Shown here piece by piece: positions 1,744-17,113 of a stretch of DNA of 64,000 bases. Both the position numbers and the translations under genes were made by a program. Source of the stretch: Rhizobium sp. GN54 (lineage in GTDB: Bacteria > Pseudomonadota > Alphaproteobacteria > Rhizobiales > Rhizobiaceae); NCBI RefSeq assembly GCF_021026345.1, contig NZ_JAJNCZ010000001.1, positions 744,001-808,000 of the forward strand, given 5' to 3'. The notes beneath the pieces were generated by a model. That model worked only from the letters and a program-made list of their open reading frames with translations, searched no databases and was not told the origin of the DNA. Position 1 is the stretch's first letter; each line of letters opens with the position of its first letter.

Positions 1744-1773
1744 ATGCGGCGTCCTCGGGGCGCCGCATTTTTT
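1744..1773 (+). terminator. intrinsic terminator of the LysM gene
   Basis: An 8-bp perfect stem (ATGCGGCG / CGCCGCAT) with a 9-base loop is followed directly by six T. It lies 65 bases after the LysM stop and 44 bases before the next start. Confidence 0.85.
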
Positions 1774-1816
1774 CTTGAACGCATGAGCCGGCGCCGGTCG
1801 GCACCCGGAGGCGCGC

Positions 1817-3721: not shown

Positions 3722-5071
3722 TTACGGCCGCACCGCGCCCGCAAAGGTGCGGTCGGCAAGCGTCGGCAGCATCCATCGGAAGGCGACGCTTCTGGCGCCC
3801 TGGAACGTCAGCAACGCCAGCCACAGCCCGGTATTGCCGAACAGCGGCTGCAGCACCGCCCAGGTGGCGAAGTAGACGGCGAGCGAGGCGAGCATCAGGT
3901 TGCGCATCTGCCGCGACCAGGTCGCGCCGATATAGATGCCGTCCATCTGGAAGGCGACGAGGCCGACCAGCGGCAGCACCACCACATAGGGCAGGTAGTC
4001 GTGCGCAAGCGCCACGATCTCCGGCGAAGGCGCGATCATGTCGATCACCCAGCCGCCCGAGAGCAGAAAGGCCAGCGCGACGAGGCCGGCGAAGACGAAC
4101 CCCCACAGCGTCGTCAGCGACAGCATCCGGTCGAAGGCCGGGCGGTAGCGCGCGCCGATCGCCCGGCCCGCCATCTGCTCGGCGGCGGTGGCGATGCCGT
4201 CGAGGAAGGCGACGCCGAAGAAGTAGAACCGCAGCAGGATGGTGTTGGCGGCAAGGATGTCGATGCCGAGGACGCCGCTCTGCCGGGTGAAGAAGGACAG
4301 ACCGATCAGCAGCGACAGCGAGCGGATCATCATGTCGCCGTTGACGGAGAACATCCGCTTCAGCGCCGCCAGATCCGGTCGGTTCCAGGCGTGGCGGTCG
4401 GTCCGGGCAAAGACGAGGGCGATGCCCACGATCGCGGTCACCGCTTCGGCCACGAGCGAGGCGGCGGCGACGCCGGCCAGCCCCCAGCCGAGGTCCAGCA
4501 CCCAGTAGAGGCTGAGGACGATGTTGAGGCCGTTCAGCAGCGTCTGCAGCAGCATCGCCGTCAGCGCCTCGCCGCGGCCGATGATCCAGCCGAAGATGAC
4601 GAAGTTGACGAGCACGAAGGGTGCCGACCAGACGCGCCAGGAAAAATAGACCTGCGCCGCCTCGGCGACCGCGCCGTCGGCGCCGAGCAGCGCGAGGCCG
4701 AGCGTGCCGATCGGCCCCTGCAGGACGAGGATCGCAAGCCCCGAGACGAGTGCCACGACGAGGCCGCCGAGTAGCATGCGCTGTTCGAAGAGGCGGTCGT
4801 CCGCGCCGATTGCCTGTGCGGTGAAGCCGGTCGTGGCCCCTCTGAGGAAATTGAAGGAGACGAAGATCACGTCGAAGATCACCGCCGCCAGCGCCACGCC
4901 GCCGACGAGGGCCTCGTCGCGCAATTGCCCGATGACGCCGGTGGCGACGAGGCTCACCAGCGGCGTCGAGAGATAGGCGATCATCATCGGGATGGCGATG
5001 CGCAGCACGTCGCCATGCGAAATCGTGAAGGGCCTGGCCGCGCCGGTGGCACTTTCGGAAGAAGCGGTCAC
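3722..5071 (-). CDS. MATE family multidrug/toxic-compound exporter (DinF-like)
   Basis: A 449-aa inner-membrane protein with about 12 hydrophobic segments in two related halves, beginning with ISHGDVLRIAIPMM and TPLVSLVATGVIGQL. These are typical of MATE/DinF sodium- or proton-driven antiporters, which expel cationic or oxidised small molecules. The start is GTG at 5071; the preceding gene's stop (TGA, 5074-5072) directly abuts it, so the two are almost certainly co-translated. It is the last gene of the long leftward operon that starts at the racemase (13163). It may export a product or toxic by-product of the oxidative enzymes encoded upstream; that role is inferred from position only. Confidence 0.88.
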   Translation of the reverse strand: MTASSESATGAARPFTISHGDVLRIAIPMMIAYLSTPLVSLVATGVIGQLRDEALVGGVALAAVIFDVIFVSFNFLRGATTGFTAQAIGADDRLFEQRMLLGGLVVALVSGLAILVLQGPIGTLGLALLGADGAVAEAAQVYFSWRVWSAPFVLVNFVIFGWIIGRGEALTAMLLQTLLNGLNIVLSLYWVLDLGWGLAGVAAASLVAEAVTAIVGIALVFARTDRHAWNRPDLAALKRMFSVNGDMMIRSLSLLIGLSFFTRQSGVLGIDILAANTILLRFYFFGVAFLDGIATAAEQMAGRAIGARYRPAFDRMLSLTTLWGFVFAGLVALAFLLSGGWVIDMIAPSPEIVALAHDYLPYVVVLPLVGLVAFQMDGIYIGATWSRQMRNLMLASLAVYFATWAVLQPLFGNTGLWLALLTFQGARSVAFRWMLPTLADRTFAGAVRP

Positions 5072-5647
5072 TCAGTCTTTCCGATGCGGTTCGCCGAGCG
5101 TATGCATCAGCCGGTTGGCCCAGCCGAAGATGGCGACGGAGTGGATCAGGTCGAGGATCTCGAGATCGTCGAGCCCCTTCTCGCGCAGGTGGTAGAACTG
5201 GTAGACGCCGACATTGTCGGGATGGGCGGTCAGGTCCACGCCGAAGTTGAACAGCGCCTGGTCGTATTCCGGAAGGTCGGCATCGAGCCCGCTCCGGTAG
5301 ATCTCGTCCACCACCTCCGGCCGCTTCTCCAGCTGGATGTAGCGGTTGGCGTGCACGGCCGCGCAGTAGACACAGTGGTTGACGAAGGAGGCGGCGAGCG
5401 CGCCGAGTTCCCGTCCGCCGCGCGACAGTCCGCCTTCGCTGTACATGATGTCGTTGAACAGCGGCGTACGCTCGGCGAGCGTCTCGGCCTCCTGGGCGAG
5501 CACCAGCACATAGGCCGAGACCTTGGTGTTGGACGGCGTGACCTTCAGCGCATCGAGCTGTTCCGGCGTCGCAGCCGAGAGATCCACCGGCTTCACGTAA
5601 GGATGCCAGTCGAGCGGTTCGAGGGTGAAATCATTTACGACGGTCAT
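5072..5647 (-). CDS. alkylhydroperoxidase/CMD-fold protein (Avi_7169-type)
   Basis: A 191-aa protein of the AhpD/carboxymuconolactone decarboxylase fold. The AhpD-like redox motif is present as NHCVYCAAVHANRY, giving a CxxC pair followed by His, the arrangement used by AhpD to reduce peroxides through a cysteine relay. Length and motif order match what I recall as the 'alkylhydroperoxidase domain protein, Avi_7169 family', which travels with a companion CMD protein; that companion is encoded just upstream (5649-6155), one base away. The gene abuts the MATE gene downstream with no gap. Probable job: peroxide or redox handling tied to the monooxygenase in the same operon. The substrate is unknown. 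Confidence 0.8.
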   Translation of the reverse strand: MTVVNDFTLEPLDWHPYVKPVDLSAATPEQLDALKVTPSNTKVSAYVLVLAQEAETLAERTPLFNDIMYSEGGLSRGGRELGALAASFVNHCVYCAAVHANRYIQLEKRPEVVDEIYRSGLDADLPEYDQALFNFGVDLTAHPDNVGVYQFYHLREKGLDDLEILDLIHSVAIFGWANRLMHTLGEPHRKD

Positions 5648-5648
5648 G

Positions 5649-6155
5649 TCAGTTGTCCCTCAGCATCTTGAGCCCGGCGACCACGAGGATCTGGTAGTTG
5701 ACGAAGGCGATCAGCCCGGCAAGCGTGACGATGTCGCGGTCGTCCAGGCCGGCGGCATGGAGCGCCTCGATATTGGCGCGCGTCGCAGCCTTCGGGTTCA
5801 GCGTGACGAGATCGACGTGGCGCAGGATGGCAGCGAGGCGCGATTGCCCGTCCTCGGGCGTCCAGCCGCTATCGGCGACGTTCAGAAGTTCCGCCGTCGA
5901 GCCCTCCTGTTCGAGCAGCCCGCGATAGTGCGCGGCGAGTTCGTCGGCCTTCCAGAGGGCCGACATGCGGGCGGCGATCGCGGCGCGGAGGGGGTAGGGG
6001 AAATTGCGCGGCTCCTTCGGGCGCAGGGCCGCGAGATAGCTCGACTGGGTCAGCGCCTTCAGCTTCTCGCGCTTCTCGCGCAGCGCCTTGAGCTCGGAGC
6101 CCGCCTCGAGCCCGAGCACGCTGTCGATGACGTCGCCGGTGGTTTGCTCGCTCAT
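5649..6155 (-). CDS. CMD-fold protein (Avi_7170-type)
   Basis: About 168 residues, with a carboxymuconolactone-decarboxylase-like helical C-terminal half (AALRPKEPRNFPYPLRAAIA, then LVTLNPKAATRANIEALHA, then AGLIAFVNYQILVVAGL). It lacks the CxxC pair of its partner at 5072-5647, so it may be a non-catalytic or differently active subunit. The ATG at 6155 is preferred over an in-frame TTG at 6173: it follows a GGAAGGATGAG stretch and leaves a clean 4-base gap to the upstream stop instead of an overlap. Pairing with an AhpD-like protein fits the Avi_7169/Avi_7170 pair I recall from curated protein families; biochemical function is not known to me. Confidence 0.75.
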   Translation of the reverse strand: MSEQTTGDVIDSVLGLEAGSELKALREKREKLKALTQSSYLAALRPKEPRNFPYPLRAAIAARMSALWKADELAAHYRGLLEQEGSTAELLNVADSGWTPEDGQSRLAAILRHVDLVTLNPKAATRANIEALHAAGLDDRDIVTLAGLIAFVNYQILVVAGLKMLRDN

Positions 6156-6159
6156 TGCC

Positions 6160-6750
6160 TCATCCTTCCGCAAGCGCTTCGTCGAGGAAGCTCAACCGGT
6201 CCTGTCCCCAGTAGAGCACGTCCTTGTAGATCCAGGTCGGCGTGCCGAACACGCCGCGCCGTTTTGCTTCCTCGTGGCTGTCGTGCCAGGCCTTCACGAT
6301 CTCCGGGTCTTCCTCCAGCGCCTGCAGCCTGCGGCCGTCGAGTCCGAGCCGGTCGGCAACGGCGATCCGCACCTCGGGCACGGTCACGTCCTGCTCCTCG
6401 CTCCACAGCGCTCGCAGCAGCGCATGGCTCAGTTCCAGCGCCGGCAGTCCCAGCCGGTCTGCGGCGATCACCATGCGGGCGGAGAACTCGTTGTTGGTGG
6501 GGTAGTATCTGGGCTTCAGCACCAGCGGCATGTCCAGCCGCTTGCGCCAGCGGTCGAGCTCGACGGCATGGTAGTCCTGCCGCGGCTGCGGCCGCGAGCG
6601 CAGCGGCACCCCGCCATTGTCCGGAACGATCCGCGTCGGCCGGACCACGATGTTAAGATCGTGCTTCGCAATCAGCGCCTTGAACTGCGGCCAGCCGAGA
6701 TAGGCCCAGGGCGAACTGAGCGCATGATAATAGTAGACGGTCTTTTTCAT
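6160..6750 (-). CDS. DsbA-fold oxidoreductase, 2-hydroxychromene-2-carboxylate isomerase family
   Basis: A 196-aa protein of the DsbA/kappa-GST fold. It opens with YYYHALSSPWAYLGW, where a Ser replaces the catalytic Cys of DsbA as in HCCA isomerases, and ends with the cis-Pro segment GVFGTPTWIYKDVLYWG. Known members use glutathione as cofactor to isomerise ring-cleavage intermediates in aromatic degradation (naphthalene pathway); many homologues have unknown substrates. It sits 9 bases after the flavin monooxygenase and 4 bases before the CMD gene, so it is in the same transcript and probably handles a monooxygenase product. The exact reaction is inferred only to family level. Confidence 0.82.
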   Translation of the reverse strand: MKKTVYYYHALSSPWAYLGWPQFKALIAKHDLNIVVRPTRIVPDNGGVPLRSRPQPRQDYHAVELDRWRKRLDMPLVLKPRYYPTNNEFSARMVIAADRLGLPALELSHALLRALWSEEQDVTVPEVRIAVADRLGLDGRRLQALEEDPEIVKAWHDSHEEAKRRGVFGTPTWIYKDVLYWGQDRLSFLDEALAEG

Positions 6751-6759
6751 GGGCTGGCC

Positions 6760-8223
6760 TCAGGCTGTCTTCTGTTCCCGAACGGCATCGGCATCCGTCC
6801 ACTCCGAGCCGTCCAGTTCCGGCTTCTCGTAGGCGAGCAGTTCCTGCCAGTGATGGTCGATGTCGCGGATGAACAGGGAGGCGGAGACGCCGCGGGCGAG
6901 CCAGAGCGCACCCTCGCTGATCGCCGGAATGTCGCCGCTGACCTTGCCGAGGCTCATCGAGGAACCGTAGTTGAAGCAGTGGATGTCCTTCAGCCATGGC
7001 GCGGTCCCGGGTTCCTTCTCGGTGAAGGAGAAGTCCTCCTCTAGCCAGGGGAAGCGGCCGAGCGGGGCGTTCTCCTCGCCTTCGGGCGGGGTGTAGCGGT
7101 CTTCCCAGCAGGCGATCCTGTCCTGGAACGGCGCAAGTTCGGGGCGCGCCAGCGGATCGACGTTGAAGCCGGTACCGAGGATGACGAAATCGGTGCGGAA
7201 GATCCGGCCCTTGTTCGTGGTGATGACGACCTCGCCGTCCTCCTCGCGCATCGACCGGATGCCGCAGTCGAAATGGAAATAGGCGTTCGGATGACGGCTG
7301 ACGCGCAGCGTCGAATTGTGCGGTGCCGGCGTCTGCTGCTTGGTGGCGTAGTCCATCAGCCGCCAGCGCCAGGCCGGCTCGATCTTGGGAAAGCCCGCCG
7401 TGACGCCGTAGGAGCCGATGCCCATCAGCTTGTTGATGGTCGGCATCGATTTGCGCCGCGCCAGCAGGCGGACCTCGCCGGCGCCGGCCTCCAGCGCCTC
7501 GGCCGCGTTGTCCACCGCCGAGGCGCCGACGCCGATCACCACCACCCGCTTGCCCTTCAGCGCGGCGAAATCGATCATGTCGGCGGAATGCCCCCAGGTC
7601 TTCAGCCGGGTGAGGGGAGCGACGAAATCCGGGATGGCCGGCTCGCCGAGCCCGTCGCGGCCGGTCGCCATGACGAGCTTGCGGGTGATGATCGAAGGGC
7701 GCTCGCCGCCGGCGATCTCAAGCTCCAGCAACCCGTCGTCGCGGGGGATGACGCGCGTGACGTCGATGCCGTTCTCGACCGGCACCGACAGGACGTCGCG
7801 ATACCAGTTGAGATAGTCCATCCACATCGGGCGCGGGATCCGGAAGAGTTCCTCCCAGGCGGCGACCCCGAAGAGCGCCGTATACCAGGCGCGGAAGGTG
7901 AGCGAAGCCATGCCGAGCGCCGGGCCGAGCAGGTTCTTCGGCGAGCGCAGCGTCTCCATGCGGGCATAGGTCACCCACGGTCCCTCCGCGCCCTTCTGCG
8001 CCCGATCGACGATGCGCAGGTTGCGGATGCCGGCCCGCGTCAGCGCCAGCCAGGCGACCAGCCCGCACATGCCGCCGCCGATGATGACGGCGTCGCAGAC
8101 CGCCTGGCCCGCCTCCGTTCCGACCGGCTTGCTCCAGTTGGCCGGCGGGAAGTTCAGGTATTCGAGATCCTGCTTCACCCTTGCATTGAGCTCGGCGAGC
8201 CTCGGGTCCTGTGCGCTTGTCAT
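6760..8223 (-). CDS. FAD/NAD(P)H-dependent flavin monooxygenase
   Basis: A 487-aa FMO/Baeyer-Villiger-like flavoprotein. The FAD-binding dinucleotide fold is seen at CDAVIIGGGMCGLVAW (about residues 43-58). A second Rossmann motif for NAD(P)H lies in KGKRVVVIGVGASAVDNAAE, and an ATG-type hinge appears in FVILGTGFNVD. Such enzymes insert one oxygen atom into amines, sulfides or ketones. A stretch of about 80 bases separates it from the ABC ATPase gene upstream; downstream it is tightly joined to the isomerase-like gene. The combination of importer, flavin monooxygenase and peroxide handling suggests oxidation of an imported nitrogen compound; the substrate cannot be told from sequence. Confidence 0.85.
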   Translation of the reverse strand: MTSAQDPRLAELNARVKQDLEYLNFPPANWSKPVGTEAGQAVCDAVIIGGGMCGLVAWLALTRAGIRNLRIVDRAQKGAEGPWVTYARMETLRSPKNLLGPALGMASLTFRAWYTALFGVAAWEELFRIPRPMWMDYLNWYRDVLSVPVENGIDVTRVIPRDDGLLELEIAGGERPSIITRKLVMATGRDGLGEPAIPDFVAPLTRLKTWGHSADMIDFAALKGKRVVVIGVGASAVDNAAEALEAGAGEVRLLARRKSMPTINKLMGIGSYGVTAGFPKIEPAWRWRLMDYATKQQTPAPHNSTLRVSRHPNAYFHFDCGIRSMREEDGEVVITTNKGRIFRTDFVILGTGFNVDPLARPELAPFQDRIACWEDRYTPPEGEENAPLGRFPWLEEDFSFTEKEPGTAPWLKDIHCFNYGSSMSLGKVSGDIPAISEGALWLARGVSASLFIRDIDHHWQELLAYEKPELDGSEWTDADAVREQKTA

Positions 8224-8306
8224 CGTCTGTCCTGTCCTTGTCGAATGCGGGTCGGTCCGGCCGTTGGCGGACGTCCGGCGTTGTTCTGTCTGCCTGCGGA
8301 CGGCCC

Positions 8307-9377
8307 TCAGTCGCGCAGAAGCACGGCGTCCTGTTCGCGCCAGCCGATCCAGATGTCGTCCGAATGAAGCTGCGACAGCGCCACCGGGTCGATCTGTACG
8401 ACGAGTTCCTTGCCGTTCGTGAGCTGCACGGTGAGCGCGCTGTGGGCGCCCTTGAAGACGCGCCGCACGATCCGGCCTTTGAGCGCCAGCCTATCCCCGG
8501 GCTTGTCGGCGAGGCAGTAGAGCGATTCCGGCCGCAGCGCGACCGTCGTCCGGTCGCCCGCGGCAACCCGGTTGCCGTTCACGTCGGCATGGATGACATG
8601 CCCGTCCCAGTCGAGCGTGGCGACATTGCCGTGCACGGCGGTGACGTCCGCCTCGAGGAAGTTGCTCTCGCCGATGAAGTTGGCGACGAAACGGCTCTGC
8701 GGGCGCGAATAGAGCGTGTCGGGCGCGCCCATCTGCTCGATGCGGCCCTTGTTCATAACGACAACCACGTCCGACATCGTCAGGGCCTCCTCCTGGTCGT
8801 GGGTCACGAAGATGAAGGTCTTGCCGGTGGTCTGCTGGATCGACTTGAGCTCGATCTGCATCTGCTGGCGCAGCTTCGCATCGAGTGCCGAGAGCGGTTC
8901 GTCGAGCAGGAGCACGTGCGGATTGGGGGCGAGCGCCCGCATCAGCGCCACGCGCTGGCGCTGGCCGCCGGAGAGCTGGTCGGGCATGCGCTCGGCGAAA
9001 TCCTCCAGCTTGACGAGCGACAAGAGCTCGCTGGTCCGCTTGTGGATCGCATCCGACGCCAGCCCCTTGAGCTCCAGCCCGAAGGCGATGTTGCGCCCGA
9101 CCGAAAGGTGCGGGAACAGCGCATAGTCCTGGAACACGATGTTGACGTTGCGCTTGTTCGGCGGGAGCTTCGTGATCGGCTTGCCGTCGAGGAAGATCTC
9201 GCCGGACGACGGCGTCTCGAAACCGCCCAGCATCCTGAGCGTGGTCGACTTGCCGCAGCCGGACGGGCCGAGCAGGGTGACGAACTGGCCGGGCTCGACG
9301 GACAGGTCGAGGTTTTCGACGGCGAGCGCAGCGCCATAGTACTTGTTGACGTTCTTGAAGTGCACGACAGGCTGCAT
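8307..9377 (-). CDS. polyamine-type ABC transporter ATP-binding protein (PotA-like)
   Basis: About 356 aa. Walker A GPSGCGKST, signature LSGGQRQRVALMRAL, Walker B LLLDEPLSALDAK, switch His in FVTHDQEEALTMSD and a C-terminal TOBE-like region are all present. It energises the import of the substrate captured by the binding protein at 11253. Two starts compete: ATG 9383 overlaps the permease stop as ATGA, but AAGGA lies only one base before it; ATG 9377 has the same AAGGA at a normal distance and is preferred. Family members carry spermidine, putrescine, iron or opine-like compounds. Confidence 0.88.
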   Translation of the reverse strand: MQPVVHFKNVNKYYGAALAVENLDLSVEPGQFVTLLGPSGCGKSTTLRMLGGFETPSSGEIFLDGKPITKLPPNKRNVNIVFQDYALFPHLSVGRNIAFGLELKGLASDAIHKRTSELLSLVKLEDFAERMPDQLSGGQRQRVALMRALAPNPHVLLLDEPLSALDAKLRQQMQIELKSIQQTTGKTFIFVTHDQEEALTMSDVVVVMNKGRIEQMGAPDTLYSRPQSRFVANFIGESNFLEADVTAVHGNVATLDWDGHVIHADVNGNRVAAGDRTTVALRPESLYCLADKPGDRLALKGRIVRRVFKGAHSALTVQLTNGKELVVQIDPVALSQLHSDDIWIGWREQDAVLLRD

Positions 9378-9379
9378 CG

Positions 9380-10171
9380 TCATTTCCTTGCGCGGCGGGT
9401 GAGATATTCGGCGTAGAGGCCGATGAGGGCGGTGGCGATGAGGACGATCGTCGCCATGGCGTTGATCTGGGGCGACATGCCGCCCTGCACCTTGGCGAAG
9501 ATCAGCATCGGCAGCGTCGGCTTGTAGCCGCCGAGGAAGAAGGTGCGCACGAAGTCGTCGATGCTGGTCAGCACGCAGAAGATCATGCCGCCGAGCAGCG
9601 CCGGCATCAGATAGGGGATGGTCACCCGGACGAAGGCGATGAAGGGATCGGCGCCGAGATCGCGGGCGGCATCGGTCAGGTTCTTCGGCATCGAGCGCAG
9701 CCGGGTCAGCGCCATGATGACCACGAACGGCACGGCATGCACGGTGTGGGCGAGGATGATCGCCGCCGTGCCGGTCGGCAGGTCGATGACGCGGATGAAG
9801 ATGCGCATCGAGATGGCGTTGATCAGGCCCGGCACGACTGCCGGCAGGCAGGCGAGCGCGAAGATCGCCGCCCGCCCGAAGATGCCTTCGGTGGCGACCA
9901 CCAGCGCGATCCAGACGCCGATGACGGTGGCGCAGACGGTGGTGGCAAAGGCGATGAAGGCGGAATAGGCGATGGCGTCGAGGAACTGTCGGTCCTGCAG
10001 CACCTCTGCGTACCACCGCAACGTCCAGTCCTGGATCGGGAAGGCGATGAAGTTGGCGTCCTTGAAGCTCATCGACATCATCAGCGTCAGCGGCAGCAGC
10101 AGGTAGGCGACGAACAGCCAGTAGCCCGCTGTCAGCGCGGTCTTGGGGAGATCGTTGAAATAATGGCGCAT
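9380..10171 (-). CDS. ABC transporter permease (PotC-like)
   Basis: A 263-aa inner-membrane permease with about six helices. The cytoplasmic EAA loop that docks on the ATPase reads LTDAARDLGADPFIAFVRVT. The start is ATG 10171 with a weak GAGG upstream; an apparent longer frame continues upstream only because it overlaps the other permease gene. The stop overlaps the possible first ATG of the ATPase gene. It forms a heterodimer with the PotB-like permease encoded 11 bases upstream. The Pot-type family assignment rests on the EAA loop, size and gene order. Confidence 0.87.
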   Translation of the reverse strand: MRHYFNDLPKTALTAGYWLFVAYLLLPLTLMMSMSFKDANFIAFPIQDWTLRWYAEVLQDRQFLDAIAYSAFIAFATTVCATVIGVWIALVVATEGIFGRAAIFALACLPAVVPGLINAISMRIFIRVIDLPTGTAAIILAHTVHAVPFVVIMALTRLRSMPKNLTDAARDLGADPFIAFVRVTIPYLMPALLGGMIFCVLTSIDDFVRTFFLGGYKPTLPMLIFAKVQGGMSPQINAMATIVLIATALIGLYAEYLTRRARK

Positions 10172-10182
10172 CGGTGCTGCCC

Positions 10183-11166
10183 TCACATCAGCCGGACGGA
10201 GCGGCCGCCGACGATCTTCATGAACAGTCCGACGGTCGAAAGCGAGACCACGAGCATGATGATCGAGAACGCAGCCCCTTCCGGCCACTTGTCGTTGGAA
10301 CCGTGGAAGAGCGTTGCGATCACTTCCGGGAAGATGACGGTCTCCGGGCCGCCGAGCAGCAGGGGGGCCGCGAACACGCCGACGGTGGTGAGATAGACCA
10401 GGCTGCAGCCCGAGACGATCCCGTCCTTCGACAGCGGCAGGATCACCCGGCGGAAGCGCTGCCAGGGCCCGGCGCCGAGGTCGTCGGCGGCATCGACCAG
10501 CTGCGGCGGGATCTTCTCGATTGCCGAGTAGAGCGGCAGCAGCATGTAGAGCGCGATCAGGTACACGACGCCGAAGCCCAGCGAGAAATAGGTGTAGAGC
10601 ATCGGGATCGGCCGATCGATCAGGCCGAGCTCGCGCAGGAGCACGTTCACCGCGCCGCGGTTGGCGAGCAGCATGATGACGGAGAAGGTCCGGATGAGCT
10701 CGCCGGCCCAGAACGGAAGGAGCAGCAGCAGCAGCGCCCGCATCCGGTTCCTGGGCTTGACCACCTTGGCGACGTAGTAGGCGACGGGATAGACGATCAC
10801 GAGCGTACAGAGCGTCACCAGCGCGGCGAAGATCAGCGTGCGGATGAAGGGGACGAAATAGAGCGGTTCCTGGAAGAACAGCCGGTAGTTCGAGAGCGTG
10901 TAGGCGTTCTGGCCGTCCACCGCTTCGGGGTAGTTCTCGAGCAGGCTGATGCGGAGCATCTGGTAGATCGGACCGATATGCAGGGCCGCGATCCAGACGA
11001 GCGGCACCCCGAGCAGGATGGTCAGGCGCACGGCCCGGCTGTTGGCGATGAGGCCGATCGTTCCCGCATAGATCGGGGAGGCGGCAAGGCGCCCGATCCA
11101 TCCCGAATAGCGGGGCGCGGAGGGGGGCGACGTCTTTCCGCTCGGTGTCATGATGCTTTCTGCCAT
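10183..11166 (-). CDS. ABC transporter permease (PotB-like)
   Basis: A 327-aa inner-membrane permease with a hydrophilic N-terminus of about 40 residues, then six or seven helices. EAA loop: LVDAADDLGAGPWQRFRRVI. It is the first permease of the transporter. Between it and the binding-protein gene lie 86 bases holding a strong hairpin (11201-11222), a common way of making more binding protein than permease from one mRNA. The substrate is inferred to be a polyamine or other small amine from family resemblance only. Confidence 0.87.
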   Translation of the reverse strand: MAESIMTPSGKTSPPSAPRYSGWIGRLAASPIYAGTIGLIANSRAVRLTILLGVPLVWIAALHIGPIYQMLRISLLENYPEAVDGQNAYTLSNYRLFFQEPLYFVPFIRTLIFAALVTLCTLVIVYPVAYYVAKVVKPRNRMRALLLLLLPFWAGELIRTFSVIMLLANRGAVNVLLRELGLIDRPIPMLYTYFSLGFGVVYLIALYMLLPLYSAIEKIPPQLVDAADDLGAGPWQRFRRVILPLSKDGIVSGCSLVYLTTVGVFAAPLLLGGPETVIFPEVIATLFHGSNDKWPEGAAFSIIMLVVSLSTVGLFMKIVGGRSVRLM

Positions 11167-11200
11167 TCTCTGTTCCCGGCTCTGGACAAGCTCTCGTTCG

Positions 11201-11222
11201 AACCGGCCCGAGCGGGCCGGTT
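11201..11222. promoter_or_regulatory. intercistronic hairpin between binding-protein and permease genes
   Basis: A perfect 10-bp inverted repeat (AACCGGCCCG / CGGGCCGGTT) with a 2-base centre. There is no T-run on the transcribed (minus) side, so it is more likely an mRNA stabiliser or processing element than a full terminator. Confidence 0.6.
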
Positions 11223-11252
11223 CCTTTCGCGTTCGGTGTCGGGACGCGCCGG

Positions 11253-12353
11253 TCAGGCGGCCTTGATCTCGGCCGCGGCCTTGTCGATCATGTCGTTCTT
11301 CATGTCGCGGTTGACAGAAGAGAAGAACTTGATGCGCTCCATCTGCTCGGGGGGAAGCGCATTGGCCGCCCGCTCGCGCTCGTTCAGGACGTTCTCGACG
11401 CCGGCGAAGGCGGAGGAGAAGCCGGACTGGCGGGTCATCGCCGCACCGATTTCCGGCGAGGAGAGGATCGCGTCGAGGAAGGTGTAGGCGGCCTCGGCGT
11501 TCGGCGCGTTGTTGACGACGTTGAACGAGTAGAGGAAGCCGTAGGTGCCTTCCTTCGGCACGGTCAGTTCGACCGGGTGGCCGTCCATGATCAGCTTCGC
11601 TGCCGGGCCGGACCAGGCCTGGGCGACGTAGGCGTCCTCGTTGACCAGCATCTGCTGCACCTCGGAGCCGGCGTCGTAATACTTGCGCACCTGGCCCTTC
11701 TGCTCGATCAGGAAGTCGCGCGCCTTGTCGGTGGCGGCCTGCGCCTCCTCCGGCTTGCCTTCGTAGGTGACGTAGTCGCCGTCATTGCCCTGGTAGAGCA
11801 TGGCGATGGAGAGGAAGTCGGAGATGATGTAGGTCGTCAGCCCCTTGTACTCCTCGTCGAACATGATCGACCAGCTGTCGGAGGCCTTGGTGTATTCGGT
11901 GTTGCGGACCAGACCCTCGAAGCCGGCGAGCAGCGGCAGGCCATAGGTCGAGCCGTCGATGGTCAGCTGCGGCGCGCCCTTGTAGGCCGAGGCCAGGTTG
12001 CCCCAGTTCTTCAGCCGGGCGGTGTCGAGCGGGGCAAGCAGCTTGCCCTTGATGAACTGCGACAGGCGGTGGCCGGTCACGGTGACGATGTCGGTGGAGG
12101 GCGCGCTGCCTTCCGCCGACAGCAGGTTGTACTGCTTGCCCTGGTCGTCGGTCAGGCGGATGCGGACCTCGATGCCGGTGTCCTTCTGGAACTGGTCGAT
12201 GAATTCCTGCGGGACGAACTTGTCGTAGGTGGTGATGTTGACCACCTTCTCCTGGGCGAAGGCCGGGCGGATGATCGAGGGCGCGGCCAGGATGCCGGTG
12301 CCGGCGGCCAAGAGCTTGAGGGTGGAGCGGCGGGTCTGCGTGAAGTCTGTCAT
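11253..12353 (-). CDS. ABC transporter periplasmic substrate-binding protein (PotD-like, Tat signal)
   Basis: A 366-aa binding protein. The N-terminus carries a twin-arginine signal, TRRSTLKLLAAGTGILAAP, with likely cleavage after AFA, so it is probably exported folded by Tat. The mature part follows the type 2 periplasmic-binding fold of spermidine/putrescine and Fe3+ binders (VVNITTYDKFVPQEFIDQFQ at its start). A good ribosome site (AGGAGAGAGAC) precedes ATG 12353. It lies 69 bases after the racemase gene and upstream of both permeases and the ATPase. It sets the specificity of the system, but the ligand cannot be read from sequence. Confidence 0.88.
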   Translation of the reverse strand: MTDFTQTRRSTLKLLAAGTGILAAPSIIRPAFAQEKVVNITTYDKFVPQEFIDQFQKDTGIEVRIRLTDDQGKQYNLLSAEGSAPSTDIVTVTGHRLSQFIKGKLLAPLDTARLKNWGNLASAYKGAPQLTIDGSTYGLPLLAGFEGLVRNTEYTKASDSWSIMFDEEYKGLTTYIISDFLSIAMLYQGNDGDYVTYEGKPEEAQAATDKARDFLIEQKGQVRKYYDAGSEVQQMLVNEDAYVAQAWSGPAAKLIMDGHPVELTVPKEGTYGFLYSFNVVNNAPNAEAAYTFLDAILSSPEIGAAMTRQSGFSSAFAGVENVLNERERAANALPPEQMERIKFFSSVNRDMKNDMIDKAAAEIKAA

Positions 12354-12422
12354 GTCTCTCTCCTGTTGAAAATTTCCCGGTCGCCCTCTGTCCTGGGCAT
12401 AACCCGCGGCCTGTTTGCTGCG

Positions 12423-13163
12423 CTAGTGCACCCCGGCAGGTTGGCCAGCCGGCCTGGCCCTGGCCATGCCTGTCGTGAGCGAAAGGTCGACGGCCGCATC
12501 CGCATGCAGCAGCGTGGAATCGAACGTCGGGATGTCGAAGTCGTCAGGGCCGACCAGCAGGCCGATCTCGGTGCATCCGAGGATGACGCTGTCGGCGCCG
12601 GCCGCCTTGCCCGCCTCGACGACCTGGAGGTAGCGTTCCTTGGAGTTCGGCCTGACGATCCCGCAGCAGAGCTCCGAGAAGATGATGTCGTGGACATCCT
12701 GCCGGTCGGCAGCGTCGGGGACGAGCGCGTCGATGTCGAACGCCTGCTTCAGCCGCTGGCGGTAGAATTCCTGCTCCATGGTGTAGCGGGTGGCGAGCAG
12801 CAGCGGACGCCTGCAGCCGGCGGCGACCACCGCCTCGCCAGTGACGTCGGCGATGTGGACCAGCGGGATGCCGACACTGGCCTGGACCTTGTCGGCGAGC
12901 AGATGCATCGTGTTGGTGCAGATCAGGATCATGTCCGCGCCTGCGCCCTCCAGTTCCCTTGCGACCTGGCCGAGCGCGTCGGCTGCCTTGTCCCACGCCC
13001 CGGCCTTCTGGAGCGCCACGATACCCTCAAAATTTAGGGATCGCAAAACCACATCGGCGGAATTCAGTCCACCAAGCCTGTCGCGAACCTGCTCGTTGAC
13101 GCGGCGATAGTAGACCGCGGTGCTCTCCCAGCTCATGCCGCCTATCAAGCCTATCCTTTTCAT
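12423..13163 (-). CDS. aspartate/glutamate racemase family protein
   Basis: A 246-aa member of the Asp/Glu/hydantoin racemase superfamily. The two catalytic cysteines sit in CTNTMH and LGCTEIG; the N-terminal signature IGLIGGMSWEST is typical of the YgeA/amino-acid racemase branch. It would interconvert D- and L-forms of an amino acid without PLP. The start is ATG 13163, with GGAAG six bases upstream; an open frame extends to 13331 but has no better start. It is the promoter-proximal gene of the leftward operon and is divergent from the Lrp-type regulator, which points to amino acid or opine metabolism. The substrate may not be aspartate or glutamate. Confidence 0.85.
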   Translation of the reverse strand: MKRIGLIGGMSWESTAVYYRRVNEQVRDRLGGLNSADVVLRSLNFEGIVALQKAGAWDKAADALGQVARELEGAGADMILICTNTMHLLADKVQASVGIPLVHIADVTGEAVVAAGCRRPLLLATRYTMEQEFYRQRLKQAFDIDALVPDAADRQDVHDIIFSELCCGIVRPNSKERYLQVVEAGKAAGADSVILGCTEIGLLVGPDDFDIPTFDSTLLHADAAVDLSLTTGMARARPAGQPAGVH

Positions 13164-13533
13164 GCGCTTCTTCCGTCTCATTGTTACTGACTGGAGAAAC
13201 GATAGGACAGGGCGGATGCGGTGAAATTGCGTTTTTTCAGATCTCCGCCGAAACCTCGGCAATGTCATCCTGCAATTTTGCCATCTTGGTAGGATGAAAT
13301 TACCAGAAATTGGCGATGCGTAAATTTTCACTCTACTGCCTGCTTTTTTGACACTTTACAGCGCCGTCGTTTTTCCTGATCAATGAAGGAGACGGCCGAC
13401 CCGGTGTTGCGTCGCTCGGCGGCGAATTTCGCCGAGGATCGGGCGCAAGGGAAGAACCAATTTGGCGCAAGAAGCGCCGGTTGGGGAAAACCTCTTCGCG
13501 GAACGAAGGTCGGGCGCAATGAACGGAGACGGC
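13164..13533. promoter_or_regulatory. divergent control region between racemase operon and Lrp gene
   Basis: This 370-base gene-free stretch is clearly more AT-rich than its surroundings (notably 13215-13380, with runs such as GCGTTTTTTCAG and CTGCTTTTTTGACAC). It must carry the promoters for both directions and is the natural place for Lrp-type binding, which prefers AT-rich bent DNA. A hairpin-like repeat with a bulge (CCAATTTGGCGC / GCGCCGGTTGG, 13457-13484) lies in the regulator's leader. No exact operator can be named. Confidence 0.5.
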
Positions 13534-13995
13534 ATGTTCGACCAGATCGACCGAAAGATCATCGAAATTCTCCAGCAGGACGCCAACAGGTCCGTCGTCG
13601 ACATTGCAAACGAGGTCGGCCTGTCGCATACGCCCTGCTGGCGCCGCATCAAGCGCATGGAAGACATGGGCCTGATCCGCAACCGCGTGGCGCTGGTCGA
13701 CCGGCGCATGGCGAACGTCGGGATGACGATCTTCATCGCCATCAAGGTGCCGCGCCACAATTCCGTCTGGCTGGATGCCTTCCGCAAGGAGATCCGCGAC
13801 ATTCCGGAAATCATGGAGGCCTATCGGCTGACAGGCGAGACCGACTACCTGCTGCGGGTCGTCGTTCCCGACATCGAGGTCTACGACCAGGTGTACCAGA
13901 ACCTCATCAACCGTCTGGAGTTCTCCGACCTTTCCTCCTCCATCGCCATGGAGGAGATGAAATTCACCACTGCGCTGCCGACCAAATACATGTAG
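13534..13995 (+). CDS. Lrp/AsnC family transcriptional regulator
   Basis: A 153-aa regulator. An N-terminal winged helix-turn-helix (DQIDRKIIEILQQDANRS, then ANEVGLSHTPCWRRIKRM) is followed by the RAM/AsnC ligand-binding domain (GMTIFIAIKVPRHN and TGETDYLLRVVVPDIEVY). Such proteins form octamers and sense amino acids. ATG 13534 is chosen because GGAGA lies five bases upstream; earlier in-frame starts at 13462 and 13519 lack this. Its position, divergent from the racemase/ABC/monooxygenase operon and directly upstream of the opine-dehydrogenase-like gene, suggests it controls both units in response to their amino-acid-like substrate. Confidence 0.9.
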   Translation: MFDQIDRKIIEILQQDANRSVVDIANEVGLSHTPCWRRIKRMEDMGLIRNRVALVDRRMANVGMTIFIAIKVPRHNSVWLDAFRKEIRDIPEIMEAYRLTGETDYLLRVVVPDIEVYDQVYQNLINRLEFSDLSSSIAMEEMKFTTALPTKYM

Positions 13996-14040
13996 CCCGG
14001 CCGGCAGTTTCCACAGACCGAAAAGACAGGAAGAAACGTC

Positions 14041-15117
14041 ATGCGCATCGCAATTCTCGGATCCGGATCGATCGCCTTCGGCATGGCCGCTTTTTTGGCC
14101 AAGTGGGGGCATGAGCCCGTCCTGTGGTCGCCTTCGGGCAAGCGGACGGAAAAGCTCGCTGCCGGCGCACCGCTGGTCGCAACCGGCGCGGTCGAATTCG
14201 AGGGCAGGGTGGCGGTCGCGAAAGACTGCGCGGAAGCGGTATCGGGCGCGGACGCCGTCGTCATCGCGCTGCCGACCAACGGCCACCGCCTGGCCTTCGA
14301 CCAGGCGCTGCCGCACCTGCGCCCGGGACAGCCGGTCATCGTCAGCTCGCACAGCTCGTTCGGCGCGCTCTATCTGTCGAAGCGCTGTGCCGAGCGCGGC
14401 CTGAAGCTGCCGATCATCGTGTGGGGGACGACGCTTCTGACCGGCCGCCAGCAGCCTGACCTCGTGAGCGTGGCCGTCAGCACGGTGCGCGAGAAGATCG
14501 ACTTCGCCACCCTGCCGAAGAGCGAGGCGGCCCTCGGCAAGTCGCTCTGCACGACCCTTTTCGGCGATCGTTTCGTCGAGCGCGACGGCATGCTGGCGAT
14601 CGCGCTCTCCAACCTGAACCCGCAGAACCATCTCGCGATCGCCCTGCTCAACCTAACCCGCATGGAGAAGGGCGAAAAATGGGGGCAGGGCGAGCACGTG
14701 ACGCCGCGCGTCGGCGCGCTGATCGAGGCGCTGGACGCCGAGCGGCTGACGATTGCCGAGAGCTTCGGCCTGTCGGTGCGCACGGTCAGGGAGCACTTCT
14801 CCCTGTCCTTCCATGTCCCCATGGCCTCGGTCGCCGAGATGAACCAGCAGATGCACCAGGAGGGGCGGGGCGGCTTCGGTCCGACGACCGTCGACAGCCG
14901 CTACATCCACGAGGACGTGCCCTTCGGCCTCGTGCCGACGAGCCTGCTCGGCCAGATCTCCGGCCGTCCGACGCCGCTGCACGACGCCGGCATCGCGCTC
15001 TTCTCCGGCACGATGGAGCAGGACCTCGCCGCGCAGAACGATCTCCTGCCCGATCTGGGGCTCGACCGGCTGGCGCCCGCCGACCTGAAGGCTCTTTGCG
15101 AGAAGGGCTTCGGCTGA
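14041..15117 (+). CDS. NAD(P)-dependent octopine/nopaline dehydrogenase family enzyme
   Basis: A 358-aa two-domain dehydrogenase. The N-terminal Rossmann fold has AILGSGSIAFGMAAFLAKWG. The C-terminal octopine-DH domain includes ALSNLNPQNHLAIALLNLTR, where the NPxxH segment carries the likely catalytic His. Family members make or break the secondary amine bond between an amino acid and a 2-oxo acid (opines). It follows the Lrp gene by 45 bases and is probably co-transcribed. Together with the divergent ABC importer and racemase it points to opine or N-alkyl amino acid metabolism. Distant relatives act on other substrates, so the exact reaction is uncertain. Confidence 0.85.
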   Translation: MRIAILGSGSIAFGMAAFLAKWGHEPVLWSPSGKRTEKLAAGAPLVATGAVEFEGRVAVAKDCAEAVSGADAVVIALPTNGHRLAFDQALPHLRPGQPVIVSSHSSFGALYLSKRCAERGLKLPIIVWGTTLLTGRQQPDLVSVAVSTVREKIDFATLPKSEAALGKSLCTTLFGDRFVERDGMLAIALSNLNPQNHLAIALLNLTRMEKGEKWGQGEHVTPRVGALIEALDAERLTIAESFGLSVRTVREHFSLSFHVPMASVAEMNQQMHQEGRGGFGPTTVDSRYIHEDVPFGLVPTSLLGQISGRPTPLHDAGIALFSGTMEQDLAAQNDLLPDLGLDRLAPADLKALCEKGFG

Positions 15118-15197
15118 AGGCCGAAGCTTCTGGCGATCCAGGCTTCCTTCGCTGCGACAGTGCTCGGCACAATGAAAGGGCAATTGCATCTGGAGCC

Positions 15198-15344
15198 GCC
15201 CCCTCTGGCCTGCCGGCCATCTCCCCCACAAGAGGGGAGAAAACCGCAGCACCCGTTTGCCCGAAGCGAGCCTCGGCAGAGCGGCGAGCCTCGGCGGGTG
15301 CGGCCGGGTCAAGCCCTCCCCCTTGTGGGGAGGGTGGGGAGGGG
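15198..15344. repeat. rhizobial-type intergenic palindromic repeat
   Basis: It fills most of the 321-base gap between the opine-dehydrogenase-like gene and psd. The left part reads CTGGCCTGCCGGCCAT then CTCCCCCACAAGAGGGGAG. The right part has a perfect 8-bp hairpin (CCCTCCCC / GGGGAGGG, 15314-15334). The two CTCCCC...GGGGAG blocks are inverted relative to each other and the outer ends are CCCCTC and GAGGGG. I recall closely similar short elements scattered through Rhizobium, Sinorhizobium and Mesorhizobium genomes. No coding potential. Confidence 0.7.
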
Positions 15345-15438
15345 TGTTCCTTTCATATGTCCCGCCGCATCATGCCGCGCACATTGCCCCGGCCGCGGTT
15401 TCGCGCTAGTTGCAGGGCACTTGAAACGGAGAGATGGC

Positions 15439-16137
15439 ATGAGTCTGGTCGATACGGTGCGCAACACGCTGGTTCCCGTCCATCGCGACGGCTGGAAATT
15501 CGTTGCCATCTTCTTCGTGGTGTCCGTCATCCTCGGCTTCCTGTGGGAACCGCTGATGTGGCTGGGCTTCGTGCTGACCGCCTGGTGCGCCTATTTCTTC
15601 CGCGATCCCGAGCGCGTCACGCCGCAGGATCCCGATCTCGTCATCAGCCCGGCCGACGGCCGCGTCTCGGCCATCGCCATGGTGACGCCGCCGCTCGAAC
15701 TCGAGCTCGGCTCCGAGCCGATGCTGCGCATCTCGGTGTTCATGAACGTCTTCAACTGCCACGTGAACCGGTCGCCGATGCGCGGCAGCGTGCGTCGCAT
15801 CGCCTATCGCGCCGGCAGCTTCCTCAATGCCGAACTCGACAAGGCGAGCCAGGAGAACGAGCGCAACGGCCTCGTCATCGACACCGCCCATGGCGAGATC
15901 GGCGTGGTCCAGATCGCCGGCCTCGTCGCCCGCCGCATCGTCTGCTGGACCTCGACCTTCGACCATCTGGAGGCCGGCGAGCGCTTCGGCCTGATCCGCT
16001 TCGGCTCGCGCCTCGACGTCTTCCTGCCGGCGGGTGCGGAAGCGCGCGTCGCCGTCGGCCAGACGGCGATCGCCGGCGAGACGGTGCTGGCCGAATTCGG
16101 TTCCGCCAAGGGTCCGCTTCTGGGACGCCGGGGTTGA
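15439..16137 (+). CDS. psd: phosphatidylserine decarboxylase proenzyme
   Basis: A 232-aa proenzyme of the short Psd class. It decarboxylates phosphatidylserine to phosphatidylethanolamine on the inner membrane. N-terminal hydrophobic segments are at about residues 21-53. The self-cleavage site that creates the pyruvoyl group is Gly189-Ser190 in [13 protein letters not shown]; the conserved SPADGRVS and [13 protein letters not shown] blocks are intact. The start is ATG 15439, with CGGAGAG upstream; an earlier ATG at 15434 is out of frame. pssA follows about 100 bases later and makes its substrate, so the two form one pathway unit. Confidence 0.95.
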
Positions 16138-16240
16138 CAGGCGGCGCGGATCGCACGATTCCGGGGCCGGTGTTCCGTCATAACGGGATTCCGCGCGCCC
16201 TGACCTGCGAGCGCCGGTCCTGCCAGCAAAGCGAGCCGAG

Positions 16241-17113
16241 ATGAAAACGCCGTTTCACCCCTACGAGCCGAACGGCCCCAACGACGAGGCGCGCGGGCCG
16301 CGCCTGCGGCAGATACCGCTCCGGGTGATCATTCCGAACATGATCACGATCCTGGCGATCTGCGCGGGGCTGACCGGCATCCGCCTCGCCTTCGAGAACC
16401 GCTACGAGCTCGCCGTCGGCATGGTCCTGCTCGCCGCCTTCCTCGACGGCATCGACGGCCGGGTCGCAAGGCTCCTGAAGGCCACGTCGAAATTCGGCGT
16501 GCAGATGGATTCTCTGGCCGACATCGTCAATTTCGGCGTTGCACCCGCGCTGGTGCTCTACGTGTTCATCCTCGACCAGGCGCGCTCGGTCGGCTGGATC
16601 GCCGCCCTGATCTTCGCGATCGCCGCCGGCCTGCGGCTTGCCCGCTTCAACGTCATGTCGGAGCGTGAGACCAAGGCATCCTGGCAGTCGGAATATTTCG
16701 TCGGCGTACCCGCGCCGGCCGGCGCCATGCTGGTGCTGCTGCCGGTCTATGTCGGCTTCCTCGGCCTCGCCCCCAGCCTGCCCTTCGCGCTCGTCTCGTC
16801 CGCCTATACCGTGCTGATCGCCTTCCTTCTCGTCAGCCGCGTGCCGGTCTGGTCGGGCAAGTCCGAGGGCAGCCGCATCCGCCGGGATTTCGTCCTGCCG
16901 GTGATGCTGGTCGTCGTCATCTACGTCGCCACCCTGATGAGCTTCACCTGGGAGACCATGGTGGTGACTGTTGCGATCTATCTCGTCTCGCTCCCCTTCG
17001 GCGCCCGCGCCTGGTACCGCAAGTACGGCGGCTGGCCTTCGGCCGATGCCGCAGTGGAAAACCACTTCCCCGGCGAGGTGGAAGAGGATCCCGAGACCCG
17101 CGACGGCCGCTAG
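16241..17113 (+). CDS. pssA: CDP-diacylglycerol-serine O-phosphatidyltransferase
   Basis: A 290-aa integral membrane enzyme that joins serine to CDP-diacylglycerol to give phosphatidylserine, which Psd then decarboxylates. The CDP-alcohol phosphatidyltransferase signature is complete: DGRVAR, then G, D and D at the required spacing (DGIDGRVARLLKATSKFG followed by VQMDSLADIV). About eight hydrophobic segments and a short hydrophilic N-terminus are visible. It is of the type II (Bacillus/rhizobial) PssA class rather than the soluble E. coli class. A hairpin follows the stop. Confidence 0.95.
   Translation: MKTPFHPYEPNGPNDEARGPRLRQIPLRVIIPNMITILAICAGLTGIRLAFENRYELAVGMVLLAAFLDGIDGRVARLLKATSKFGVQMDSLADIVNFGVAPALVLYVFILDQARSVGWIAALIFAIAAGLRLARFNVMSERETKASWQSEYFVGVPAPAGAMLVLLPVYVGFLGLAPSLPFALVSSAYTVLIAFLLVSRVPVWSGKSEGSRIRRDFVLPVMLVVVIYVATLMSFTWETMVVTVAIYLVSLPFGARAWYRKYGGWPSADAAVENHFPGEVEEDPETRDGR

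What the first reader, a model, noticed from the sequence alone, without database searches (positions are those of the whole stretch)
5072..15117. Candidate undescribed pathway: import, racemisation and flavin oxidation of an opine- or amine-like compound under Lrp control
Seen: one leftward string with very short junctions (0, 1, 4, 9, 11 bases and one overlap) carries racemase, binding protein, two permeases, ATPase, flavin monooxygenase, HCCA-isomerase-like protein, two CMD-fold proteins and a MATE pump. Facing it are an Lrp-type regulator and an octopine/nopaline-dehydrogenase-family enzyme. Known: CMD pairs of the Avi_7169/Avi_7170 type are, as I recall, usually found with luciferase-like FMN monooxygenases and peptide-type ABC importers of unknown purpose. 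Inferred: here the monooxygenase is replaced by an FMO-type enzyme and the importer is polyamine-type, and an opine-dehydrogenase relative and racemase are added, so the whole may form a pathway for an N-substituted amino acid or similar amine, with peroxide clean-up and product export.
Basis: partly seen in the sequence, partly recalled or inferred. Interest (0 to 1): 0.78.

Follow-up and report, generated by a model that had tools for sequence, protein, structure and literature searches.

The report
Conserved flavoenzyme module for amino-acid conjugates
A tight bacterial gene cluster that imports a small molecule and attacks it with a flavin enzyme is a real, repeatedly reused and apparently undescribed module, and its relatives' neighbours suggest that it frees cysteine (sulfur) from modified amino acids rather than handling polyamines.

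Summary
A leftward string (3722-13163) plus a divergent Lrp-like regulator and opine-dehydrogenase relative (to 15117) is as described. The core set recurs in Ancylobacter, Rhizobium, Agrobacterium (pAtC58), Sinorhizobium (pSymB), Shinella and Aureimonas, and the block is missing from the same spot in a genome of the same genus. Of 73 loci with a related flavoenzyme, 57 have CMD2 (CMD1 detected in 54). All 25 with this PotF-like importer also have the opine-dehydrogenase relative, though mostly on one clade. Other loci have amino-acid-type (6) or peptide-type (4) importers; in 22 none of the three was seen. In 10 of 57 a relative of cysteine-desulfurating PLP enzymes lies nearby; some have an S/N-oxide reductase, persulfide dioxygenase or sulfite exporter. 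The window's binding protein has none of PotF's four acidic ligand residues. Best reading: import of a conjugated, probably cysteine-derived amino acid, removal of an N-carboxyalkyl group, then flavin-dependent oxygenation that frees the amino acid. Against it: the flavoenzyme's nearest folds are N-hydroxylases, the sulfur link is post hoc (p 0.10 against a small control), and this genome has no linked desulfurating enzyme. Substrate unproven.

The parts
3722..5071 (-). MATE efflux transporter (DinF-like), last gene of the string
   Evidence: TIGR00797 190.9 bits against 147.4; 0 bases to CMD2; a close relative in 12 of 57 core loci
5072..5647 (-). CMD2: AhpD-like peroxidase-related protein with Cys92-X-X-Cys95 and His99
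   Evidence: TIGR01926 227.7 bits against 81.8; both Cys and the His invariant in 27 of 27 aligned sequences
5649..6173 (-). CMD1: Avi_7170-family CMD-fold protein without conserved cysteine
   Evidence: TIGR04029 111.1 bits against 100.75; no invariant or nearly invariant Cys in 23 aligned sequences
6160..6750 (-). DsbA-fold / GST-kappa / HCCA-isomerase-like protein
   Evidence: PF01323 101.1 bits; nearest solved 2imd HCCA isomerase, then GST kappa; in 9 of 57 core loci
6760..8223 (-). flavin monooxygenase of an uncharacterised clade, fold nearest to N-hydroxylating monooxygenases
   Evidence: PF13738 and PF13434 over cut-off; AF2 model pLDDT 82.9; the 50 Foldseek rows shown are of that class
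8307..9377 (-). ABC importer ATPase (start 9377 or 9383)
   Evidence: PF00005, PF08402 TOBE_2
9380..10171 (-). ABC importer permease 2 (PotC-like)
   Evidence: NF007047 146.5 bits, below its cut-off of 326
10183..11166 (-). ABC importer permease 1
   Evidence: open frame; conserved with the other importer genes in relatives; not scanned against families
11253..12353 (-). PotF-like solute-binding protein with altered ligand residues (K45, L186, P250, Y275 at PotF D39, E185, D247, D278)
   Evidence: PF13416; HMMER alignment to 1a99; PotF residue numbers recalled
12423..13163 (-). YgeA-type Asp/Glu-superfamily amino acid racemase
   Evidence: TIGR00035 225.7 bits against 93.1; nearest solved 5hqt
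13519..13995 (+). Lrp/AsnC-type regulator (ATG 13519; the open frame begins at TTG 13462)
   Evidence: PF01037, PF13404 (scanned from 13462); start read
14041..15117 (+). Opine-dehydrogenase-family enzyme (ODH)
   Evidence: PF02317 119.7 bits against 30; only solved relative at E 0.001 is 1bg6, N-(1-D-carboxyethyl)-L-norvaline dehydrogenase, E 5.7e-38; H197 and D292 invariant in 14 of 14
13164..13518 (.). divergent intergenic region (G+C 0.507 over 13164-13461 against 0.654 for 3722-15117), likely control region
   Evidence: not tested for promoters

Best explanation
A catabolic salvage module for a conjugated amino acid. Shown: a conserved unit of importer, flavin monooxygenase and CMD pair, with an opine-dehydrogenase relative in every core locus that has this PotF-like importer. 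Inferred, step by step: (1) the binding protein and ABC importer take up an N-carboxyalkyl (opine-like) amino acid; (2) ODH removes the N-carboxyalkyl group with NAD(P)+, giving a keto acid and a free, still S-substituted amino acid, most likely a cysteine derivative; (3) the racemase, where present, turns the wrong enantiomer; (4) the flavin monooxygenase oxygenates it (on S most likely, on N possibly) so that the substituent leaves and cysteine, at first as a sulfenic acid or similar, is set free; (5) the CMD pair (CxxC in CMD2, CMD1 as non-catalytic partner) and, where present, the GST-kappa-like protein reduce that product, or peroxide from uncoupling; (6) cysteine enters metabolism (in some relatives desulfurating enzymes lie next door); (7) MATE exports surplus or by-product.
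For: Module: 57 of 73 flavoenzyme loci have CMD2 nearby, CMD1 detected in 54 of 57. PotF-like importer and ODH together in 25 of 25, in three gene orders. The importer label changes at least 10 times on the flavoenzyme tree, 'none seen' counted as a label. Front ends fit the importer: 4 of 4 loci with the f23-type peptide importer have an M24 peptidase or proline-iminopeptidase-like hydrolase; 6 of 6 with the amino-acid importer have no ODH. Cysteine: class V PLP enzymes with the desulfurase-type Cys (C426) invariant in 6 of 6 sit 0.1-2.9 kb from the flavoenzyme in 6 loci, four of them PotF+ODH loci. Relatives of L-cysteine desulfhydrase Cds1 (NF052478 571 and 559 bits for the two scanned, cut-off 600; the other three 65-78% identical to the first) sit 0.04-0.44 kb from the nearer CMD gene in L068, L073, L074, L092 and L124. 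BisC-family S/N-oxide reductase (722 bits for the one scanned, cut-off 1018) in four genomes with the peptide importer. Blh-like persulfide dioxygenase (538 bits, cut-off 625) and TauE in L081, near-identical in L067. Published analogue: CmoO/CmoJ S-alkylcysteine salvage (PMC10863075).
Against: The flavoenzyme's nearest solved folds are amine N-hydroxylases. This genome has no class V relative at E 1e-20 and only a 26% relative of the desulfhydrase, unlinked. Cysteine enzymes are in only 10 of 57 core loci, against 0 of 16 without CMD2 (Fisher p 0.10; at least three of the 16 stretches are cut short by contig ends), from few lineages (at least 3 changes on the tree), and were picked out after the fact among many recurrent neighbours. 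Close copies also lie elsewhere (G040, G115; G298). In 22 of 57 core loci none of the three importer kinds was seen; looser peptide-type binding proteins (28-29%) in L095 and L117-L119 come without the peptidase genes used as markers. The PotF/ODH link rests mostly on one clade with two independent contrasts; Roseomonas loci L046-L048 have a distant ODH relative (32-34%) without this importer. In S. meliloti the orthologous genes respond to the nitrogen regulator GlnD; the passages I saw report no sulfur link. No acetyltransferase or deacetylase as in the published pathways.
Confidence: 0.42

Rival explanations
1. N-oxygenation pathway: the flavoenzyme hydroxylates the nitrogen of an imported opine- or amine-like compound, which then falls apart; sulfur is not involved in this subtype.
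For: Predicted fold nearest to ornithine, lysine, putrescine and cadaverine N-hydroxylases; PF13434 over cut-off; nearest solved relative of ODH acts on a secondary amine (1bg6); GlnD-dependent expression in S. meliloti.
Against: Cysteine-desulfurase-like genes sit in four PotF+ODH loci (L057, L059, L061, L094); only 14-18% identity to the N-hydroxylases and TM 0.59-0.64, a superfamily link.
Confidence: 0.3
2. Detoxification module: the flavoenzyme modifies a plant- or microbe-made toxic amino acid, CMD proteins remove peroxide, MATE exports the product.
For: MATE relative in 12 of 57 core loci; AhpD-like CMD2; GST-kappa-like protein.
Against: A dedicated importer, and peptidases in the peptide form, argue for nutrition; MATE and GST-kappa-like relatives were not found in 45 and 48 of 57 core loci, S. 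meliloti included.
Confidence: 0.17
3. Polyamine uptake and use, as the S. meliloti genes have been labelled in papers.
For: Binding protein and permease hit PotF/PotC/PotD models; PMC3596328 and PMC3484140 call SMb20278-20285 / SMb20284 putative polyamine uptake.
Against: All four acidic ligand residues of PotF are replaced in the window; the PotF, PotD, YdcS and PotC model scores are far under their cut-offs; no polyamine enzyme among the scanned genes.
Confidence: 0.04
4. Chance neighbours under unrelated control.
For: The regulator differs between loci (Lrp, LysR, XRE).
Against: Same core set in many genera and several gene orders; whole block present or absent at one site within the genus.
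Confidence: 0.01

Closest known systems
S-alkylcysteine salvage of B. subtilis, CmoO/CmoJ (PMC10863075; parts 1 and 2 of 3 of the text read)
   Same: Flavin oxygenases attack a substituted cysteine, a sulfenic acid results and is reduced to recover cysteine; the paper calls the pathway widely distributed in soil bacteria
   Different: That route uses N-acetylation and deacetylation and CmoJ, a homologue of YxeK and DszA; here one flavoenzyme of another superfamily, a CMD pair and ODH or peptidases; substrate unproven
S-(2-succino)cysteine breakdown, yxe/scm operon with YxeK or 2SL (PMC9706529; abstract, outline and passages seen)
   Same: ABC importer, flavin monooxygenase and accessory enzymes in one locus; the cleaving enzyme is swapped between loci
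   Different: No relative of YxeK, YxeL or YxeP among the family hits of the window's scanned genes
Avi_7169/Avi_7170 CMD pair with luciferase-like monooxygenase KPN_01858 (NCBIfam TIGR04027-TIGR04030)
   Same: CMD pair next to a flavin monooxygenase and an ABC importer (L085, L097, L098, L099-L101, L103)
   Different: There the oxygenase is luciferase-like; here N-hydroxylase-like; CMD2 is under the Avi_7169 cut-off. The search by these names listed one paper that names KPN_01858 once, which I did not open
S. meliloti SMb20278-SMb20285 (PMC3596328, passages seen)
   Same: Eight genes that fit L075: LysR, binding protein, two permeases, ATPase, flavoenzyme, CMD1, CMD2 (matched by order and description, the record carries no annotation)
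   Different: No MATE, HCCA, racemase or Lrp relative in the stretch; labelled polyamine uptake in the paper
N-(1-D-carboxyethyl)-L-norvaline dehydrogenase (1bg6)
   Same: Only solved relative of ODH at E 0.001, E 5.7e-38
   Different: Substrate of the window's ODH not known

Membership tests
Avi_7170 CMD family (TIGR04029) | score over curated cut-off 100.75 | tested here: met
   CMD1 111.1 bits
Avi_7169 CMD family (TIGR04030) | score over curated cut-off 233.15 | tested here: not met
   CMD2 149.1 bits; over the cut-off of the broader TIGR01926
Classical FMO (PF00743) | score over gathering cut-off 22 | tested here: not met
   15.9 bits
N-hydroxylating flavin monooxygenases (PF13434, SidA/PvdA fold) | sequence domain and fold | tested here: met
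   43.2 bits against 21.3, residues 125-260; the 50 Foldseek rows shown of 1843
N-hydroxylating flavin monooxygenases (PF13434, SidA/PvdA fold) | hydroxylates an amine nitrogen | not testable with these tools
   needs enzyme assay
Polyamine-binding proteins PotF/PotD | curated score cut-off | tested here: not met
   PotF model 68.1 against 636, PotD 53 against 582
Polyamine-binding proteins PotF/PotD | acidic ligand residues D39, E185, D247, D278 (numbers recalled) | tested here: not met
   K45, L186, P250, Y275 in the window; P250 and Y275 invariant in 11 of 11, but the D39 position is D in L062, L063 and L094
Opine dehydrogenases (PF02317) | domain over cut-off | tested here: met
   119.7 against 30
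Opine dehydrogenases (PF02317) | catalytic His/Asp (H202 and D297 of 1bg6, recalled) | tested here: inconclusive
   H197 and D292 invariant in 14 of 14 and the offset fits, but no residue alignment with 1bg6 was printed
AhpD-like peroxidases | CxxC plus His | tested here: met
   CMD2, 27 of 27
Cmo/Yxe cysteine salvage | N-acetyltransferase and deacetylase with YxeK/CmoJ-type oxygenase | tested here: not met
   none among the family hits of the window's scanned genes (permease 1 not scanned)
Cmo/Yxe cysteine salvage | cysteine released from an S-substituted cysteine | not testable with these tools
   needs growth and enzyme tests

The most novel reading that the evidence does not exclude
A widespread, undescribed aerobic module that frees cysteine from conjugates with a single N-hydroxylase-like flavoenzyme and a CMD pair, fed by interchangeable front ends: opine dehydrogenase behind a PotF-like importer, peptidases behind a peptide importer, none behind an amino-acid importer. 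If so, soil and plant bacteria use opine-type cysteine conjugates that have not been looked for, and a set of 'polyamine' importers is mislabelled.
Probability: 0.3. Interest if true: 0.75.

Novelty: new variant of a known kind. Interest (0 to 1): 0.55.

Why it matters
The module is frequent on large replicons of rhizobia and agrobacteria, including the model strains S. meliloti 1021 (L075) and A. fabrum C58, so it is testable at once. It would give a function to CMD families that NCBIfam still marks as hypothetical, correct the polyamine label of a conserved importer, and link opine-dehydrogenase relatives to the use of organosulfur or N-substituted amino acids around plants.

Tried and rejected
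Polyamine reading: set aside on ligand residues. Chance neighbours: rejected on recurrence and the empty site. Structure of the binding protein: model too poor to use (mean pLDDT 46.6); nothing drawn from it. Flavoenzyme against PDB by single sequence: no hit at 1e-5; by profile 22 hits, best 42 bits. GNAT and FAD_binding_3 genes beside the Shinella locus: seen once, not used. IscS-like gene near L119: found in that locus alone, not counted. Paper searches: eight ran and their listings showed no paper that describes this cluster as a pathway; papers listed for single gene or model names (PMC4231840; PMC13106123; PMC7194016) were not opened. The 16 control loci without CMD2 are few, and L054, L109 and L120 lie on short contigs, so a CMD gene could be beyond the end. 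The genomes were partly chosen because the gene had been seen there (5 of 12 and 5 of 10), so those counts are not an unbiased test. Rows outside the 73: L051, L123, L124, L125 were merged with overlapping loci (L073, L070, L072, L069); L085, L086, L092 and other stretches without a flavoenzyme match over 300 bits, L082 among them, were left out; L049 was kept although its match is in pieces. The tree (71 rows) also left out L049 and L084, and does not count the desulfhydrase of L124 for L072.
Full report
What is there. The window is part of contig C1 of a 5.57 Mb genome whose nearest named relative in the scan is Mycoplana azooxidifex (98% at the flavoenzyme). The leftward string 13163-3722 holds racemase, binding protein, two permeases, ATPase, flavoenzyme, DsbA/GST-kappa-like protein, CMD1, CMD2 and MATE, with the junctions listed in the observation check; facing it are an Lrp-like regulator and an opine-dehydrogenase relative. 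Cluster G+C is 0.654 against 0.662 for the rest of the window, so composition does not mark it as foreign. In genome G323 of the same genus the genes on both sides are neighbours: window 303-3678 and 15367-17078 match stretches 924 bases apart. The block was therefore gained here or lost there as a unit.

Recurrence. The flavoenzyme is found at E 1e-40 or better in 67 of 397 genomes of the order, the window's own included. Of 73 distinct loci with a flavoenzyme match, 57 have CMD2 nearby, and CMD1 was detected in 54 of these. The 16 without CMD2 have flavoenzymes of at most 48% identity, except L054 (56%, contig of 14.6 kb). In S. meliloti 1021 pSymB (L075) the order LysR, binding protein, two permeases, ATPase, flavoenzyme, CMD1, CMD2 fits SMb20285-SMb20278 as described in PMC3596328 (passages seen). 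In A. fabrum C58 pAt the set with HCCA and MATE is annotated gene by gene, with LysR in place of racemase and Lrp.

The importer and ODH. All 25 core loci with a PotF-like binding protein (45% identity or more) also have ODH (45% or more); one further core locus has ODH alone (L070); Roseomonas loci L046-L048 have a distant relative of ODH (32-34%) without this importer. Three gene orders occur: ODH divergent (window), ODH after CMD2 (L055, L080), ODH between CMD2 and binding protein (L057 and kin). On the flavoenzyme tree this is mostly one clade, with two independent contrasts, both in the expected direction in most pairings, so common descent explains much of it. The binding protein aligns with PotF (1a99), but W37, S38, D39, E185, D247 and D278 become Y43, D44, K45, L186, P250 and Y275 (PotF numbers recalled). 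K45 is invariant among 10 close relatives. In farther ones the same position is N or D, D as in PotF in L062, L063 and L094, while P250 and Y275 are invariant in 11 of 11. Polyamine binding is unlikely in the window; the ligand is unknown.

The core enzymes. The flavoenzyme clade has 57% mean column identity over 35 diverse members with intact dinucleotide-binding motifs. It has no PDB relative by single sequence. Its predicted structure (pLDDT 82.9) is nearest to N-hydroxylating monooxygenases such as PvdA, SidA, DesB and putrescine N-hydroxylase: TM 0.59-0.64 on the query, 14-18% identity, in the 50 rows shown of 1843 (the role of DesB is recalled). That is a superfamily link and does not fix the atom that is oxygenated, but it speaks against a classical FMO. 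CMD2 keeps CxxC and His in 27 of 27; CMD1 has no conserved Cys and may be a partner subunit; in the Klebsiella record the two are one fused protein beside a luciferase-like monooxygenase (L085).

Swapped front and back ends. Six core loci have the amino-acid-type importer and no ODH; four have the f23-type peptide importer, all four with an M24 peptidase or proline-iminopeptidase-like hydrolase and no ODH. In the other 22 core loci none of the three importer kinds was seen by my cut-offs; some of these have TctC-like or LivK-like binding proteins, and L095 and L117-L119 have looser peptide-type binding proteins (28-29%) without the marker peptidases. The importer label changes at least 10 times on the tree, 'none seen' counted as a label. 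Back ends point to cysteine. A class V PLP enzyme of about 500 residues from the SufS/CsdB superfamily, with the catalytic Cys position (C426) and the PLP lysine motif invariant in 6 of 6 (the position of SufS Cys364 is recalled), lies 0.1-2.9 kb from the flavoenzyme in L057, L059, L061, L094, L067 and L081. It scores far under the SufS cut-off (109-131 against 475, three scanned), so it is a relative, not SufS. A PLP enzyme close to L-cysteine desulfhydrase Cds1 (571 and 559 bits for L073 and L068, cut-off 600) lies next to the CMD genes in L068, L073, L074, L092 and L124. A BisC-family S/N-oxide reductase (722 bits in L124, cut-off 1018) accompanies the peptide-importer form in L069, L072/L124, L073 and L092. 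L081 adds a Blh-like persulfide dioxygenase (538 bits, cut-off 625) and TauE, both 98% identical in L067. Genome-wide, close copies of the class V enzyme were found in 7 of 12 genomes and lie within 10 kb of the flavoenzyme in 5; close copies of the desulfhydrase were found in 6 of 10 genomes and lie beside the CMD genes in 5; 5 genomes of each set were chosen because the gene had been seen there. The window's genome has no close copy of either.

Reading. Where they are known, the front ends free an alpha-amino group (ODH from an N-carboxyalkyl group, peptidases from a peptide), and the back ends, where present, take cysteine apart. The flavoenzyme and CMD pair in between should then free cysteine from a substituent. 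This works like the published CmoO/CmoJ and YxeK routes, in which a flavin oxygenase cleaves a substituted cysteine and a sulfenic acid or thiol is recovered (PMC10863075, parts 1-2 of 3 read; PMC9706529, abstract and passages), but none of their marker enzymes was found among the window's scanned genes. The N-hydroxylase-like fold, the nitrogen-linked control in S. meliloti and the lack of a desulfurating gene in this genome keep the N-oxygenation reading alive at about 0.3.

Verdict on novelty. Eight paper searches listed no description of this cluster as a pathway; two papers mention the S. meliloti genes as putative polyamine uptake. I rate it a new variant of a known kind: an importer-fed flavin-oxygenase salvage module, with new parts and an unproven substrate.

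Noticed in passing
window 15190-15345: A short dispersed repeat of about 150 bases near the start of the phosphatidylserine decarboxylase gene; similar places in 158 plasmid records (count a lower bound), mostly Rhizobiaceae, and eight further places in G323. It looks like the RIME element of rhizobia (name recalled).
   Followed up: partly
L086 (G323, same genus), CMD2 at 9951-10721: A CMD1-CMD2 pair (38% and 57%) without the flavoenzyme in the 20 kb stretch, near TctC-like binding proteins: the pair can stand without this oxygenase.
   Followed up: no
L082 (pTi1D1487) 9989-11428: A more distant flavoenzyme relative (35%) on a Ti plasmid, in a run with two luciferase-like monooxygenases, an ABC importer, an acyl-CoA dehydrogenase and the lactonase gene aiiB.
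   Followed up: no
L049, flavoenzyme region around 10312-11181 and MATE region: In Rhizobium sp. 32-5/1 the flavoenzyme and MATE matches are in several pieces, so these genes look broken or the assembly has errors; the other cluster genes match in one piece.
   Followed up: no
L085, L088, L096, L097, L098, L103: CMD1 and CMD2 appear as one open frame of about 360-460 residues, beside a luciferase-like oxygenase (L085, L097, L098, L103) or the flavoenzyme of this clade (L088, L096); in L103 only the CMD2 part was detected.
   Followed up: partly
L111, L121, L122: DsbA/GST-kappa-like genes (45-53% to the window's) also lie near flavoenzymes of the outer clade without CMD genes, so this pairing does not depend on the CMD pair.
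   Followed up: partly
G896, G902, G985, G990: Four flavoenzyme matches outside the CMD-bearing clade each show one in-frame TGA within the match; not examined whether real or an alignment edge.
   Followed up: no
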